Virus record (IMG/VR): IMGVR_UViG_3300049845_000469
Location: 1 to 22,603 of that record
Length of the DNA stretch: 22,603 bases
DNA from: a virus
Strand: one strand, 5' to 3'
The position numbers were made by a program, and so were the translations under genes. Below are positions 3,900-22,425 of the stretch, piece after piece. Positions within the stretch are counted from its first letter, which is position 1; each line of letters begins with the position of its first letter. Under the pieces are notes generated by a model that had not been told where the DNA came from, made no database searches, and worked only from the letters and a program-made list of their open reading frames with translations.

Positions 3900-5776
3900 T
3901 AACGCCATGGTATCTAATCGAAGATGAGGATACGGCGCGCAGAGAGCTTATTAGTGCATTAATTAAAATATCAGAGGGTGATTTTCGGCTTGAAGAGCAT
4001 ACAAGGTACCTAAAGTTGTATTCGGGTCTTCCTCAATTGTCTAATTTGGGGTTTTACACCTCTACAAGTTACAATTATCTACGGGCTAAGAACAAGATGC
4101 GCGAGAAGTACCGCGTAAATTATAATGTAGTTAAATCGGTAATAGATACACTGGTGGCCAAAGCTTGTTTAAATCCCCCAAAAGCTACCTTAATCACAGA
4201 AGGTGGGGATATCTGTGATAGGTTAATGGCTCATAGGCTAGACAAGGCCATTTATATGGTAATGAAGCAAGGAGGAGTGTTTAAGAATTGGGCGCAATTT
4301 GTGAAGCAAGCCTTAGTTCATGGTGACTGTGAGATAAAAGTATATGCAGATTTAGCATGCAAGCAGGTAAAGTTTGAGAAAATACTACCTCCTGACCTTT
4401 ATGTACACAATTTAGACGCTATGTACGGCGACCCTACTTGCAAATATCAGACAACTTTTATGCGCAAGGATATTTTGTTTGCCAAATACCCTGCATTTGA
4501 GGAAGTCTATTTTAAAAAGTACAAAACCTCCAGCGTAAGATTGGACAGCCAGTTTATTTCTAAAAATAAGATAGATACCCAAACAGAATACGCGGAGTAT
4601 GTGGAGTTACTAGAGGCTTGGAAGATAAAAACTTCCCCAAGGGATAAAGGTAGGCACATGATTGTGTGTCGATATGGCACTATTTTAGATGAGTCGTATG
4701 AAGAATACACTCACAGGTTTGCTCGGCTAAGCTGGAATCGCCCACACATCGGATATTATTCCGATGGTGTGGCTAGCCAGTTAAGTTCGAAACAAGATCA
4801 AATAAATATGATTCTTAGTTTTATGACGGAAGCGGCGGAAAAATCTAAATCCCCTAAGTTGGTTGTGTATAATCAAGATTTAAGCAAAAGTCTGGACATA
4901 AAAACCAATGACATTGGACAAATACTTAATATTTCAGGAACTAGCAGGCCTGAATGGCTGTCATTTGGAGGATACCCTCCTACGGAATTTGAGCGGTTGC
5001 AGTGGTTAATACGTTCTTGCTATGAAGAAGTCGGACTAAACCAAATGAGTTCTACTGGAAAAAATATTATCGGATCTGGAGCATCAAAAGTAGCACTTCA
5101 GGAGTTTACAGACATTGAATCGGACAGATTTCAAGAGTTTGGTAAGGCTCTAGATAATTTTATGGTTGACCTTTGTGGTAAGACCATTCTAGCCTTAAAA
5201 GACTTGAAAAAAGGTGGCGTTAAGGAGTTATATGGCTCATATAATGGCGCGTATTGTGAGGTAGATTTAGAAAAAATCGATTTTGAGGATGACTATGATT
5301 TTACGATAGTAACTAGCTCTATGCTGCCGATGAGTTCTTCTGTGCGTAAAGATTTTGTTAGCGATTTATATAACAGTGGCATAATTGATAGCACGAAAAG
5401 GCTAGAATTACTACAAATGCCTGACTTAGAGCAGTATAATAAGATAACGCTTGCCCCTAGAACCGCTATAGAGATGCAAATTGAAAAAATTATTGATACT
5501 AAGGATGAACAATACATATTAGTGAACGAGAATTTTGACCTGAAATATGGGTTACAATTTGTGACTGCTTTACTATGTCAATACTCATATGATATGGATA
5601 CAGAGAATGGGGATACCGCTAAGATATTAAACTTGTTAGAGCAATTTAAAGTGAATTTAACTATTAAGCTGCAAGAGATGCAGGCAGTGCAGCAGCAGTT
5701 GGTTCAGCAATTACAAGCGGCTCCTATTGGAAACCCTGCGCAGGTTAGTGTAAGTTCGGCGCCAAGCGCGTCTTAA
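3869..5776 (+). CDS. Portal protein
   Basis: A 635-residue protein placed directly after the large terminase and before the scaffold, the standard portal position. The portal forms the dodecameric ring at one capsid vertex through which DNA enters. The N-terminal third carries KYRVNYNVVKSVIDTLVAKACLNPPKATLI, typical of podovirus portals in which the crown/wing begins after an N-terminal helix. The middle has the QDQINMILSFMTEAAEKSKSPKLVV and SGASKVALQEFTDIESDRFQEFGKALDNF helices expected of stem and wing. The C-terminus (EQFKVNLTIKLQEMQAVQQQLVQQLQ) is a glutamine-rich helix like the barrel of other podovirus portals. The start at 3869 uses GGTGAGG upstream and overlaps the terminase gene by 31 bases. 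Confidence 0.88.
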   Translation: MEQLGNERLLVTPWYLIEDEDTARRELISALIKISEGDFRLEEHTRYLKLYSGLPQLSNLGFYTSTSYNYLRAKNKMREKYRVNYNVVKSVIDTLVAKACLNPPKATLITEGGDICDRLMAHRLDKAIYMVMKQGGVFKNWAQFVKQALVHGDCEIKVYADLACKQVKFEKILPPDLYVHNLDAMYGDPTCKYQTTFMRKDILFAKYPAFEEVYFKKYKTSSVRLDSQFISKNKIDTQTEYAEYVELLEAWKIKTSPRDKGRHMIVCRYGTILDESYEEYTHRFARLSWNRPHIGYYSDGVASQLSSKQDQINMILSFMTEAAEKSKSPKLVVYNQDLSKSLDIKTNDIGQILNISGTSRPEWLSFGGYPPTEFERLQWLIRSCYEEVGLNQMSSTGKNIIGSGASKVALQEFTDIESDRFQEFGKALDNFMVDLCGKTILALKDLKKGGVKELYGSYNGAYCEVDLEKIDFEDDYDFTIVTSSMLPMSSSVRKDFVSDLYNSGIIDSTKRLELLQMPDLEQYNKITLAPRTAIEMQIEKIIDTKDEQYILVNENFDLKYGLQFVTALLCQYSYDMDTENGDTAKILNLLEQFKVNLTIKLQEMQAVQQQLVQQLQAAPIGNPAQVSVSSAPSAS

Positions 5777-5786
5777 AGGAGTTTTT

Positions 5787-6755
5787 ATGACAGATACCGC
5801 ACCAGCAACAACCACCTCTATTGTCGAGGAGACTTTGACCCCTCCTACTTCTTCAGAGGTAGTAGCTCCAGAAGCTACACCTTCGAAGGATATCATACCC
5901 TCAGCTCCAGCTCCAGCCCCTAATGTAGATGAGCTAAAAAGCAAAATAGCGGAGTACGAACGAAACATAAAAGAGTTACAGGACAAGGCAAGTGCTCTGG
6001 AGCAAGAATCTTCAGAGTATCGGGGAAAGAAAAGTTTGTTATCCCTGATTGAAGGGCTAAGTCCATCTGCTATTCAATCCTTAAAAGCTAAGGATGTATG
6101 GTCTTTAATTGATGCAATGGAGATGAAGGATGAAGACCTGCTAGAGACGGTCGCTAAAGGGCGCCCTCAAATATCTGTGGAAGACAGAATTGCTAGAGAG
6201 TTCGAGAAGCTAAAACAGGCGGAGACTAAAGCCGCAGAGCAGAGACAAAAAGAACAGTACCAGAAGCTCAGAGAAGGACATGCAAAGAATCTATCAGATT
6301 GGTTAGATAAGTCAACCGTCGAGCCAGAATATGAAAATTCTCACGCTATTTTAAAATTTATTCGAGAAGAAAAAGACATGCCTGTAGAGCAAGTACTTAT
6401 TGATATGGTGGAAAAACGAGGAATAACTTATGGGGAGGCGGTAAATGTACTTGCTAAAGAGGTTCAAGAAAAAGTTTTACGATACACGTCTTTAAAATCG
6501 CTTGACTTAGAATTATCAAAGAAATATGATAAAAATAAGACACAAGTTTCTGGAAATGAGGAACTTACATCTGACGATAAGAAAGAAAAAGAAGTTATAA
6601 AGACCCTTGAAGCTAAGATAGAGTCAGCACCAAAGACATCATCCCTTTACGATGACGATGGAGTCGATGAGACTACATTGCCATTGGATGCACTTGTGGC
6701 GAGACTGAAGCGGAAGGAAGCAATGAGAATTGCAGCCCTTCGCAAAAAAGCTTAA
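5787..6755 (+). CDS. Capsid scaffolding protein
   Basis: A 322-residue, highly charged, helical protein between portal and capsid genes. Residues 1-45 are rich in Pro, Ala, Thr and Ser and look disordered. From about 46 to 80 (DELKSKIAEYERNIKELQDKASALEQE) it has strong coiled-coil character, and another charged helix runs over about 130-165. The last 17 residues (RLKRKEAMRIAALRKKA) form a basic helix like the capsid-binding tail of known scaffolds. Scaffolds guide assembly of the procapsid and leave before or during DNA packaging. AAAGGAG lies at the correct distance from ATG. Its stop codon lies inside the first arm of a three-arm hairpin system that reaches the capsid gene's ribosome binding site (see 6750-6801). 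Confidence 0.85.
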   Translation: MTDTAPATTTSIVEETLTPPTSSEVVAPEATPSKDIIPSAPAPAPNVDELKSKIAEYERNIKELQDKASALEQESSEYRGKKSLLSLIEGLSPSAIQSLKAKDVWSLIDAMEMKDEDLLETVAKGRPQISVEDRIAREFEKLKQAETKAAEQRQKEQYQKLREGHAKNLSDWLDKSTVEPEYENSHAILKFIREEKDMPVEQVLIDMVEKRGITYGEAVNVLAKEVQEKVLRYTSLKSLDLELSKKYDKNKTQVSGNEELTSDDKKEKEVIKTLEAKIESAPKTSSLYDDDGVDETTLPLDALVARLKRKEAMRIAALRKKA

Positions 6756-6801
6756 GGGTCAAACTTATTAATAGCCCTTAAGCGCAACACCTAGCTTAAG
6801 G
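6750..6801 (+). promoter_or_regulatory. Three-arm alternative hairpin before the capsid gene
   Basis: Arm 1, GCTTAAGGG (6750-6758), covers the scaffold stop codon. Arm 2, CCCTTAAGC (6775-6783), pairs perfectly with arm 1 (9 bp, 16-nt loop). Arm 3, GCTTAAGG (6794-6801), pairs equally well with arm 2 (8 bp, 10-nt loop) and contains part of the AAGGA Shine-Dalgarno site (6798-6802) of the capsid gene at 6809. The two hairpins exclude each other. This geometry could tune capsid translation according to ribosomes finishing the scaffold gene; that role is inferred. No T-run follows, so it is not an intrinsic terminator. Confidence 0.6.
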
Positions 6802-6808
6802 AAATAAT

Positions 6809-8474: not shown

Positions 8475-8512
8475 CTTTACCTCCCCTTTTGTTAGATCTT
8501 GTCTTTTGCATG

Positions 8513-8546
8513 CCCCAATGCTACTATAGTAGTATTGGGGTTTTTT
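8513..8546 (+). terminator. Strong intrinsic terminator after the capsid genes
   Basis: A 13-bp stem, CCCCAATGCTACT with AGTAGTATTGGGG (8513-8540, one G-U pair), is followed at once by six T (8541-8546). It stands 38 bases after the decoration gene stop and only 16 bases before the next ATG. Phage T7 has its main late terminator in the same place, after the capsid gene, so partial readthrough setting a high capsid-to-tail ratio is a likely role. Confidence 0.9.
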
Positions 8547-8562: not shown

Positions 8563-9216
8563 ATGGCAAGGAACTACACGTGGGGCGCATTACGTACAAA
8601 AATTAGACAGAGAACCAATAAAGAAATATCACAATTTGTTAAAGACTCAGAAATAGATGGGATGATGGAAGAGTCCTACGCTACTTTACATAATATACTA
8701 GTAAATCTGAATGAGAACTACATCTATAAAGAGTACCAGCTGGCTATTTATGCAAATACTACTAGGTTTGAGCTACCCGTAGATTTTTTTAAGTTGAAGG
8801 GAGTCACTATAGAAGATAACGGATATATACGTAGATTAGAGTTGGTGCCATGGGAACGTCGCTGTCATTATCAACAAACGTCTCCAGCGTGGGGAGGGTA
8901 CCCTGTTGGTTATGCTTTAGTAGGTAGTCAAATTCAATTTTTTCCTACTTCTCAGTCAAATATATACGTTACAGTGGGATATATCCCTGCCGCACCTGTT
9001 TACATAAGTGATGAGACAGTTATAGATGGGATTTCAGGTTTTGAGACCTATATTATCTATTCAGTAGCTGCCTTAATTAGGGCGAAGGAGGAGAAGCCTG
9101 CTTCAGAGTTTTTAGCGCAAAGAGAATTAGCGTTGCAAAATATCCGTGCAGCAGCAACTCCTCGGGATATGGAAAATGCGGTAACGATAACTGACGTATT
9201 GGTATATGATATATGA
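8563..9216 (+). CDS. Head-tail adaptor (T7 gp11-like tail tubular protein A type)
   Basis: A 217-residue protein with TWGALRTKIRQRTNKEISQFVKDSEIDGMMEESYATLHNILVNLNENYIYKEY at residues 6-58, a helical start typical of podovirus adaptors that bind the portal. Next comes a beta region (FELPVDFFKLKGVTI, IQFFPTSQSNIYVTVGYIPAAP) and then a helical end (YIIYSVAALIRAKEEKPASEFLAQRELALQNI). This helix-beta-helix pattern with the YIP.AP segment is common to adaptor/connector proteins next to capsid genes. AGGAG lies just before ATG, directly after the terminator's T-run. It overlaps the following gene by four bases (ATGA). Assignment rests on pattern and position, not on a catalytic motif. Confidence 0.75.
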   Translation: MARNYTWGALRTKIRQRTNKEISQFVKDSEIDGMMEESYATLHNILVNLNENYIYKEYQLAIYANTTRFELPVDFFKLKGVTIEDNGYIRRLELVPWERRCHYQQTSPAWGGYPVGYALVGSQIQFFPTSQSNIYVTVGYIPAAPVYISDETVIDGISGFETYIIYSVAALIRAKEEKPASEFLAQRELALQNIRAAATPRDMENAVTITDVLVYDI

Positions 9217-14081: not shown

Positions 14082-14408
14082 ATGTCACATTACTCGGACT
14101 ATATTAAAGAGAGAGAAGGGTATGAGTGTATAGAAAATGATAGAGGCTTTATTACTTTTGTTGTTTCAGCTAATATTTGTTATATTCGTGATATATATGT
14201 AGTAAGATCTGATAGAGGAATGGGGGTAGCAAAGGGATTATTATCTCAAGTAACTGATTTAGCAAAGTCTCGGGGGGTAAATGTGCTCGGCGCTACAGTA
14301 TGTACCACAACTAATGGGGTGGAAAACTCAATGAGTGGCCTTTTATACCAGGGATTTAAATATTCCCATGCTGAAGGGAACTTATTATTTTTTAAAAAGG
14401 AGATTTAG
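14082..14408 (+). CDS. Second GNAT-fold acetyltransferase-like protein
   Basis: A compact 108-residue protein with clear GNAT motif A: the strand YIRDIYVVRS leads into RGMGVAKGLL (R45-x-x-G48-x-A50), followed by helix LSQVTDLAKSRGVN and the motif B-like LGATVCTTTNGVENSMSGLLYQGFKYS. It is shorter than most free GNAT enzymes and lacks a long N-terminal part, so it may have lost activity or work as a structural domain. GGGAGG precedes the ATG, and it begins one base after the nozzle gene stop. It occupies the slot between nozzle and internal proteins that T7 gene 13 fills in its gene order. A virion-associated role is possible but unproven. Confidence 0.75.
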   Translation: MSHYSDYIKEREGYECIENDRGFITFVVSANICYIRDIYVVRSDRGMGVAKGLLSQVTDLAKSRGVNVLGATVCTTTNGVENSMSGLLYQGFKYSHAEGNLLFFKKEI

Positions 14409-20610: not shown

Positions 20611-20970
20611 CTAAACTTTCAATAGGTGCATTTCTATTGATTTTCGAATAGCGGTAGGGCTGCAAATGCAGTCTTCTTTGCCTTTATTGACTACTGCGTT
20701 TAATAATTCGTCGGATACTCTAAAAGTAACAGTAGTTGACTTGCGCTCTTTACAAGCCCCGTCACTAGCAGCCATGGCCGATACAGGTATTGCACCATTT
20801 ATATATCCTTCCATTGCCTCCCTTATCATTCTTTGATAGGGCACTTGCTCTTGCTGCGCTTTCTTCAGCAGACGAGAAAACATATCGCTAGTTATACGCA
20901 AGGCAACCGTCCTATCTTTTCTATAATACTCAAAAGTTCGATAAGGCTGTTCGATACTTTGTGACTCCAT
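20611..20970 (-). CDS. Protein with two tandem ribbon-helix-helix domains
   Basis: A 119-residue protein with two copies of a ribbon-helix-helix pattern in one chain. Domain one is RTVALRITSDMFSRLLKKAQQEQVPYQRMIREAMEGYI (about 20-57). Domain two is STTVTFRVSDELLNAVVNKGKEDCICSPTAIRKSIEMHLL (about 78-117). Each has a strand with alternating residues followed by two helices. Most RHH proteins are about 45-80 residues and dimerise; a fused pair could fold as a single-chain pseudo-dimer or bind a longer operator. A linker containing AMAASDGACKER joins them. Its ATG overlaps the upstream stop by one base (TAATG). A gene regulator of this block or of phage genes is the likely role. Confidence 0.65.
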   Translation of the reverse strand: MESQSIEQPYRTFEYYRKDRTVALRITSDMFSRLLKKAQQEQVPYQRMIREAMEGYINGAIPVSAMAASDGACKERKSTTVTFRVSDELLNAVVNKGKEDCICSPTAIRKSIEMHLLKV

Positions 20971-21957: not shown

Positions 21958-21986
21958 ATTTTAACACACCTACTAGACGTTGTCAA
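21958..21986 (-). promoter_or_regulatory. Near-consensus sigma70 promoter, leftward, for the accessory block
   Basis: Reading the minus strand, TTGACA (21986-21981) is a perfect -35, the spacer is 17 bp and TAAAAT (21963-21958) has five of six consensus -10 bases. The -35 lies inside the final codons of the peptidase gene and is embedded in GTTGACAAC, a small dyad. It would start transcription near 21951 and drive the genes at 21906 down to 20193. Confidence 0.75.
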
Positions 21987-22425
21987 CACCGTGATCATAT
22001 ACTCCAGACCATAATTTTTCAGATTGCCACGGGTTGGAATTGGGCTTGAAGATTCTTTTACCTGATTTTGGGGGTAATGTTTGTATGTGAACCCATGAGG
22101 GGGTAGCACGTTTATCTTCAAAATAGAGCCCCATAGATTTTGCAAGCTCTAAATTGTCCAACACATAGTTCCATACTGACATTGACGTGTCTATTATATC
22201 TACCGCATGTCCTGTAATATGAAGGGATTTTGTAGCCCCTCCTACAGAATCATTTAATTTAGCAGGTCTCCAACCAGAAGATATTGAGATGTGACCAGAG
22301 TACTCTTTTAGAAACTCTTGAACTTTCCCTCTGAGTAGTTCTAGGTTATCTGCAATTTCTTTTGTGTATTCTTTCGGGAATTGTTCGTTGCGGCCTTTTA
22401 GTAGCATGCTTATTGTGAGCTTCAT
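21973..22425 (-). CDS. M15-type zinc peptidase, probable endolysin
   Basis: A 150-residue protein with the zinc-binding signature of D-Ala-D-Ala carboxypeptidase-like M15 enzymes: S67-L-H69-I-T-G-H-A-V-D76, in the context SGWRPAKLNDSVGGATKSLHITGHAVDI, and later W111-V-H113. H69, D76 and H113 are the expected zinc ligands. Phage members of this group cut the peptide part of peptidoglycan and serve as lysins. There is no signal peptide, so it would need the holin. Its length is normal for single-domain phage M15 lysins and there is no wall-binding domain. AAAGGGAG precedes ATG at 22425. The upstream beta-barrel gene ends 17 bases before, so the two are probably cotranscribed. It lies on the strand opposite the other late genes. 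Confidence 0.85.
   Translation of the reverse strand: MKLTISMLLKGRNEQFPKEYTKEIADNLELLRGKVQEFLKEYSGHISISSGWRPAKLNDSVGGATKSLHITGHAVDIIDTSMSVWNYVLDNLELAKSMGLYFEDKRATPSWVHIQTLPPKSGKRIFKPNSNPWQSEKLWSGVYDHGVDNV

What the first reader, a model, noticed from the sequence alone, without database searches (positions are those of the whole stretch)
6750..6808. Possible RNA switch coupling scaffold termination to capsid translation
Three arms share the core CTTAAG. Arm 2 (6775-6783) pairs equally well with arm 1 (6750-6758, covering the scaffold stop codon) or arm 3 (6794-6801, covering part of the capsid Shine-Dalgarno site). A ribosome stopping at the scaffold end would occupy arm 1, releasing arm 2 to hide the capsid start; an idle upstream message would leave the capsid start open. 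The pairing is seen directly; the control model is inferred. It would be a neat way to balance scaffold and capsid supply.
Basis: partly seen in the sequence, partly recalled or inferred. Interest (0 to 1): 0.55.

Follow-up and report, generated by a model that had tools for sequence, protein, structure and literature searches.

The report
Capsid start-masking RNA switch candidate
Between the scaffold and capsid genes of an uncultivated virus, the messenger RNA can fold in two competing ways, one hiding and one freeing the capsid's ribosome site; relatives fold differently there, so the proposed switch is plausible but unproven.

Summary
The three arms are real and at the stated coordinates. 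CTTAAG occurs three times in the 22.6-kb window, all here. On the window's + strand this is the only three-arm competition with both stems at or below -9 kcal/mol, though looser three-arm sets are common (14). Calculation supports the core of the model: with arm 1 free, opening the capsid Shine-Dalgarno (SD) costs a median 1.6 kcal/mol; with a ribosome on the scaffold stop it costs 3.2-6.6 more in all 80 contexts, which shuffled spacers matched in 0 and 1 of 400. The pairings are not equal alone (-13.1 versus -9.8), and their balance depends on context. The only close relative (L001, capsid 50% identical) lacks the three-arm set: a 13-bp hairpin buries its SD, and a terminating ribosome changes that by -5.1 to +2.0. 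Of four distant relatives, one has a weak SD hairpin that a terminating ribosome opens and three have none clear. Masking of the capsid SD is thus shared with L001; the ribosome-toggled arm 1 is seen in one phage. Best reading: translational-control element with an anti-sequestrator; function and direction unproven.

The parts
5787..6755 (+). scaffold-protein-like gene (322 aa), stop codon 6753-6755
   Evidence: ORF; lies between portal-like and capsid genes; 44% identical to the same gene of L001; no PHROG match, so 'scaffold' rests on position, size and charge-rich sequence
6750..6759 (+). arm 1, overlaps the scaffold stop; anti-sequestrator strand
   Evidence: sequence; pairs 6774-6783, 10 bp, -13.1 kcal/mol
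6774..6783 (+). arm 2, the shared strand: 6774-6783 pairs arm 1, 6776-6783 pairs arm 3
6794..6801 (+). arm 3, covers 5 of 6 bases of the capsid Shine-Dalgarno
6797..6802 (+). capsid Shine-Dalgarno TAAGGA, 6 nt before ATG
   Evidence: same TAAGGA, 9 nt before ATG, in L001
6809..8113 (+). major capsid gene (434 aa)
   Evidence: phrog_14242 major head protein, E 0.00034; of 6 aligned members, 2 match that family and two other major-head families match 1 member each
8512..8546 (+). intrinsic-terminator-like hairpin (13 bp, then T run) after the small gene that follows the capsid
   Evidence: L001 has a hairpin at the same place (4697-4731)

Best explanation
The scaffold-capsid junction carries a cis-acting RNA element that controls capsid translation. 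SHOWN by sequence and computation: arm 3 contains the capsid SD; arm 2 can hide it (H23); arm 1, which overlaps the scaffold stop codon, can take arm 2 away (H12) and so acts as an anti-sequestrator; with arm 1 covered or absent, the calculated cost of opening the SD rises by several kcal/mol. SHOWN by comparison: the one close relative also hides its capsid SD, in a stronger single hairpin, so masking of the capsid SD is shared. INFERRED: that this masking sets capsid output in infection; that in the window a ribosome finishing the scaffold covers arm 1 and transiently shuts the capsid start, so dense scaffold translation lowers capsid initiation on the same message while scaffold-free messages favour capsid. 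The arm-1 layer is seen only in this phage.
For: Arms, stop and SD placement. H12 forms first and alone on a growing transcript up to 6797. Blocking 6735-6766 gives H23 0.998 and adds 3.2-6.6 kcal/mol to SD opening in 80 of 80 contexts. Without arm 1 (5' end at 6760) opening costs 7.1-8.3 versus 1.3-3.5 with it. Null shuffles of 6756-6794: 0 of 400 and 1 of 400 reach the observed difference. Only + strand three-arm set in the window with both stems at -9 kcal/mol or below. Independent test in L001: 13-bp stem over the capsid SD, 4 of 5000 shuffles, MFE z -5.0; it is the longest SD-zone stem among 10 gene starts examined in that contig, the others reaching 8.
Against: n = 1 for the three-arm form. 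L001 lacks it and does not toggle the same way. L005 has the opposite predicted sign and L006-L008 show no strong masking. Loose three-arm sets are common, and a stem of 8 bp or more lies over the SD zone in 5 of 14 window genes, so H23 alone is not unusual. The free-state balance swings with the context chosen (H12 0.05 to 0.99). The 91-nt fold is ordinary (z -0.70). A pattern scan of viral contigs for the three-arm motif returned 18 stretches, none before a recognisable capsid start. Ribosome dwell at the stop, co-translational unfolding and host factors are not modelled.
Confidence: 0.4

Rival explanations
1. T4 gene e type control: read-through messages have the capsid SD buried, and capsid is made from a shorter message whose 5' end (promoter or cleavage) lies inside or after the hairpin and so lacks the masking strand.
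For: Precedent: T4 e, soc, 49 and I-TevI (PMC3014915 passages). In L001 a 5' end at 2972 lowers SD opening from 5.9-8.2 to 2.0-3.5 kcal/mol; in the window a 5' end at 6784 gives 1.2-1.6. AT-rich boxes TTATATAAA (L001 hairpin loop) and TTATTAATA (window H12 loop) lie just upstream. It explains how a capsid SD so deeply buried in L001 could still be used.
Against: No sigma-70-like + strand promoter found at either junction. The AT-rich boxes do not recur as a shared motif at other junctions, and the loop similarity is not significant (160 of 2000 shuffles). No transcript data.
Confidence: 0.22
2. No dedicated function: the SD core TTAAGG lies in a near-palindrome, so repeated CTTAAG words make stems easily; the fold has little effect on an SD that ribosomes find anyway.
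For: 91-nt fold z -0.70; 14 loose three-arm sets on the + strand and SD-zone stems in 5 of 14 genes; free-state SD accessibility is ordinary for this phage; distant relatives manage without strong masking.
Against: CTTAAG is otherwise absent from the window; 0 and 1 of 400 null shuffles; L001's independent 13-bp stem at the same junction.
Confidence: 0.24
3. Protein operator: the hairpin is bound by scaffold, capsid or another phage protein that represses or activates translation (autoregulation).
For: The loops of H12 (CAAACTTATTAATA) and of the L001 hairpin (CACTTATATAA) look alike and both hairpins lie at the same junction; phage proteins that bind a hairpin near their own start are known (T4 gp43, passages).
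Against: Loop similarity 160 of 2000 shuffles, not significant; loops differ in length; no RNA-binding protein identified.
Confidence: 0.08
4. Processing, mRNA stability or termination element: the hairpin is an RNase III-type site or a 5' protector of capsid mRNA; on the minus strand H12 is followed by TTTTTT and could end antisense transcripts.
For: Minus strand reads H12 then TTTTTT; the capsid unit is followed by a terminator-like hairpin in both phages, and L001 has another at its capsid stop.
Against: No T run follows either hairpin on the sense strand; the H12 loop of 14 nt is long for a terminator; L001 has no T run on the minus strand (junction sequence); the minus-strand ORFs likely to be genes start 13 kb to the right.
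Confidence: 0.06

Closest known systems
T4 gene e, soc, 49, I-TevI start-masking hairpins (PMC3014915, passages read)
   Same: SD and/or start of a late gene held in an RNA helix in read-through messages
   Different: there a late promoter removes the masking strand; no promoter found here, and the window adds a competing third arm
Classical translational coupling, upstream ribosome unwinds a structure that blocks the next start (PMC7538156, passages read)
   Same: upstream translation alters structure over the downstream SD
   Different: opposite predicted sign in the window: the ribosome at the stop promotes masking, because its modelled footprint covers arm 1 and ends before arm 2; distant relative L005 has the classical sign
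Ribosome-mediated attenuation with alternative hairpins (trp leader; erm and cat translational attenuation; recalled, not read)
   Same: a ribosome covering strand 1 decides between pairing 1-2 and 2-3
   Different: those use a stalled ribosome on a leader peptide; here a normal stop codon of a full-length structural gene; in erm and cat the stall frees the SD rather than hiding it
P22 scaffolding protein autoregulation (recalled; searches listed no paper on it)
   Same: post-transcriptional balance of scaffold and coat
   Different: there free scaffold protein lowers its own synthesis; here the predicted target is the capsid start

Membership tests
Ribosome-toggled attenuator (strands 1-2 versus 2-3) | one strand pairs alternatively with an upstream and a downstream strand | tested here: met
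Ribosome-toggled attenuator (strands 1-2 versus 2-3) | the ribosome position covers strand 1 and shifts the balance | tested here: met
   by calculation only: H23 0.998 and +3.2 to +6.6 kcal/mol in 80 of 80 contexts
Ribosome-toggled attenuator (strands 1-2 versus 2-3) | alternative pairing conserved in relatives | tested here: not met
   L001 has one hairpin and no three-arm set at the junction; L005 has a two-strand hairpin of the opposite sign, L006-L008 no strong masking
Ribosome-toggled attenuator (strands 1-2 versus 2-3) | measured change in downstream expression with upstream translation | not testable with these tools
   needs a reporter
T4 gene e type start-masking hairpin | SD or start in a stable helix in read-through RNA | tested here: met
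   L001 hairpin probability 0.995-0.998, SD unpaired 0.00; window partly, SD unpaired 0.18-0.63
T4 gene e type start-masking hairpin | promoter inside or just upstream that yields a message without the masking strand | tested here: inconclusive
   no sigma-70-like + strand site at the junction; AT-rich boxes only; phage-specific promoters not covered
Intrinsic terminator | G+C-rich stem with short loop, then T run, on the coding strand | tested here: not met
   none reported at 6750-6808 on the + strand
Rfam families | match at gathering score | tested here: not met
   0 matches in window and L001; two sub-threshold chance-level matches near the junction

The most novel reading that the evidence does not exclude
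A negative translational-coupling switch: a ribosome finishing the scaffold gene covers an anti-sequestrator strand that overlaps the stop codon, letting the next strand hide the capsid start, so the two assembly partners are balanced on one message without any protein regulator.
Probability: 0.2. Interest if true: 0.65.

Novelty: new variant of a known kind. Interest (0 to 1): 0.38.

Why it matters
Virus assembly needs scaffold and capsid proteins in proportion. If a stop codon of one gene lies in the control strand for the next gene's start, supply could be balanced by the ribosome traffic itself. The sign (translation of gene A lowers gene B) would be opposite to usual coupling and is easy to test with a reporter.

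Tried and rejected
Close relatives: nucleotide and protein searches of 50,697 phage records gave no match for the junction, capsid or portal, nor for the L006 capsid. They gave one close relative contig (L001; L003, L009, L010, L011 and L013 are the same contig), one fragment identical over 332 portal residues that ends before the junction (L004), and four distant relatives, L005-L008 (L014-L016 are the same contigs as L006-L008).

Shared loop or promoter motif: the H12 and L001 loops look alike, but 160 of 2000 shuffles score as well, and the box does not recur at other junctions. Whole-junction local alignment: 7 of 300 shuffles score as well; I think the CTTAAG words carry most of that score.

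Frameshift or readthrough at the scaffold stop: AAA AAA before GCT TAA is not a canonical -1 heptamer in frame (motif recalled), the stem starts without a spacer, and readthrough would add only about a dozen residues.

Capsid fold: AlphaFold model of mean pLDDT 31.5, not used. Rfam: nothing. Covariation with RNA models: not attempted, two homologous junctions are too few.

Full report
OBSERVATION. Arm 1 covers the scaffold stop (6753-6755), arm 3 covers five of the six bases of the capsid SD TAAGGA (6797-6802), and arm 2 lies between. CTTAAG occurs 3 times in 22,603 bases against about 10 expected, and all 3 are these arms. Region 6746-6808 folds better than its shuffles (z -2.89), and a competing three-arm set arose in 5 of 5000 shuffles; the wider 91-nt stretch is ordinary (z -0.70). 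Loose three-arm sets with G-U pairs are common (14 on the + strand). Of these only this one has both stems at -9 kcal/mol or below, and it is the only Watson-Crick-only set on that strand. The site was picked because it looked striking, so these fractions are optimistic.

THERMODYNAMICS. In flanking RNA the balance shifts with the segment folded: median H12 0.56, H23 0.43 over 396 contexts. On a growing transcript H12 forms before H23 can. The cost of opening the SD in the free RNA is a median 1.6 kcal/mol over 80 contexts; in the one context used for all genes it is 1.3, just below the 1.6-4.9 of the 11 other window genes measured. With 6735-6766 blocked, as by a ribosome whose A site holds the scaffold stop, it rises by 3.2-6.6 kcal/mol in all 80 contexts. 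The rise starts when the P site reaches 6738, and with a short leading edge of +12 it is complete only from 6744. Permuting 6756-6794 while keeping the genes and the SD gave an equal difference in 0 of 400 and 1 of 400 (two contexts). The footprint used (-15 to about +16 from the P site) is general knowledge, not measured here.

CLOSE RELATIVE. Only one was found, L001 (portal 57%, scaffold 44%, capsid 50% identical). Its junction has no three-arm set. It has one 13-bp hairpin, 2959-2971 with 2983-2995, that buries the capsid SD TAAGGA (probability 0.995-0.998, SD unpaired 0.00). This was an out-of-sample look at one named place: a stem of 13 or more arose in 4 of 5000 shuffles, MFE z -5.0. 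Among 10 gene starts examined in that contig, 5 have a stem of 8 bp or more over the SD zone; the capsid's 13 is the longest and the others are 8. By SD-unpaired probability one other gene start (7092 in the joined contig) is as masked, 0.00, and costs more to open (7.3 versus 5.9). In L001 a ribosome at the scaffold stop changes SD opening by -5.1 to +2.0 kcal/mol over 80 contexts, unlike the window; ribosomes slightly upstream of the stop raise it in the one context scanned.

DISTANT RELATIVES. L005-L008 (portal and capsid 22-24% identical) have 24-28 nt between the genes. L005 has an 8-pair hairpin (5992-5999 with 6013-6020, two G-U) that pairs the end of the scaffold gene, stop codon included, with its SD. 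SD unpaired is 0.04-0.08 and opening costs 3.5-3.7 kcal/mol, falling to 0.8-1.9 with a ribosome on the stop, the classical coupling sign; the fold is not unusual against shuffles (z -0.66). L006-L008 show no strong masking: SD unpaired 0.22-0.79, opening 0.6-3.3, and weak or doubtful SDs. So none of the five relatives shows the window's behaviour.

GENES. The window reads terminase, portal-like, scaffold-like, capsid, a small gene, a terminator-like hairpin, then a tail-adaptor-like gene (Pfam SU10_adaptor). Capsid identity rests on a weak but consistent major-head-protein match. Of the 6 portal-like proteins aligned, 5 match a head-tail adaptor PHROG and one a portal PHROG; the window's own has none. 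'Scaffold' rests on position, size and composition (no family match to a scaffold). A terminator-like hairpin after the next gene is at the same place in both phages.

MECHANISM. The feature shared with L001 is masking of the capsid SD by a CTTAAG-type stem. In the window a third strand overlapping the scaffold stop can undo the masking, and a terminating ribosome would cancel that third strand. Steps shown: sequence, alternative pairing, calculated shift. Steps inferred: that it happens in the cell, that the ribosome dwells long enough, and that output changes. The main rival is a T4 gene e type arrangement, in which a shorter message lacks the masking strand (PMC3014915, passages read). It would explain L001's deeply buried SD better than a ribosome toggle does, but no promoter was seen.

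LITERATURE. Eight searches listed no paper on such a scaffold-capsid switch; the library holds only open-licence papers, so absence there means little. Passages of two papers were read; of the others only search listings were seen. trp, erm, cat and P22 precedents are recalled.

VERDICT. Observation confirmed, interpretation partly supported; a plausible new arrangement of known parts, awaiting a reporter test and more relatives.

Noticed in passing
8512-8546; L001 4697-4731: Terminator-like perfect hairpin after the small gene that follows the capsid, at the same place in both phages; in the window it leaves little room before the adaptor gene at 8563.
   Followed up: partly
L001 4260-4289: A 12-bp hairpin spans the capsid stop codon of the relative; the window shows no comparable structure at its capsid stop.
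   Followed up: no
6744-6783, minus strand: Read on the minus strand, the arm 1-arm 2 hairpin is followed by TTTTTT (the scaffold's last two lysine codons), resembling an antisense terminator with a long loop.
   Followed up: partly
L005 5992-6020: In a distant relative the scaffold stop region pairs directly with the capsid SD (8 pairs), which would give ordinary positive coupling; the fold is weak and not unusual against shuffles.
   Followed up: partly
1875-2303 and 14082-14408: Two acetyltransferase-like (GNAT-type) genes inside or beside the structural region (Pfam and PHROG matches).
   Followed up: no
20611-20970 (-) and 21973-22425 (-): Arc-like repressor and endolysin-like genes on the minus strand to the right of the structural genes.
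   Followed up: no
L004 3917-4912: Contig from another sample whose 332 N-terminal portal residues are 100% identical to the window; it ends before the junction.
   Followed up: no
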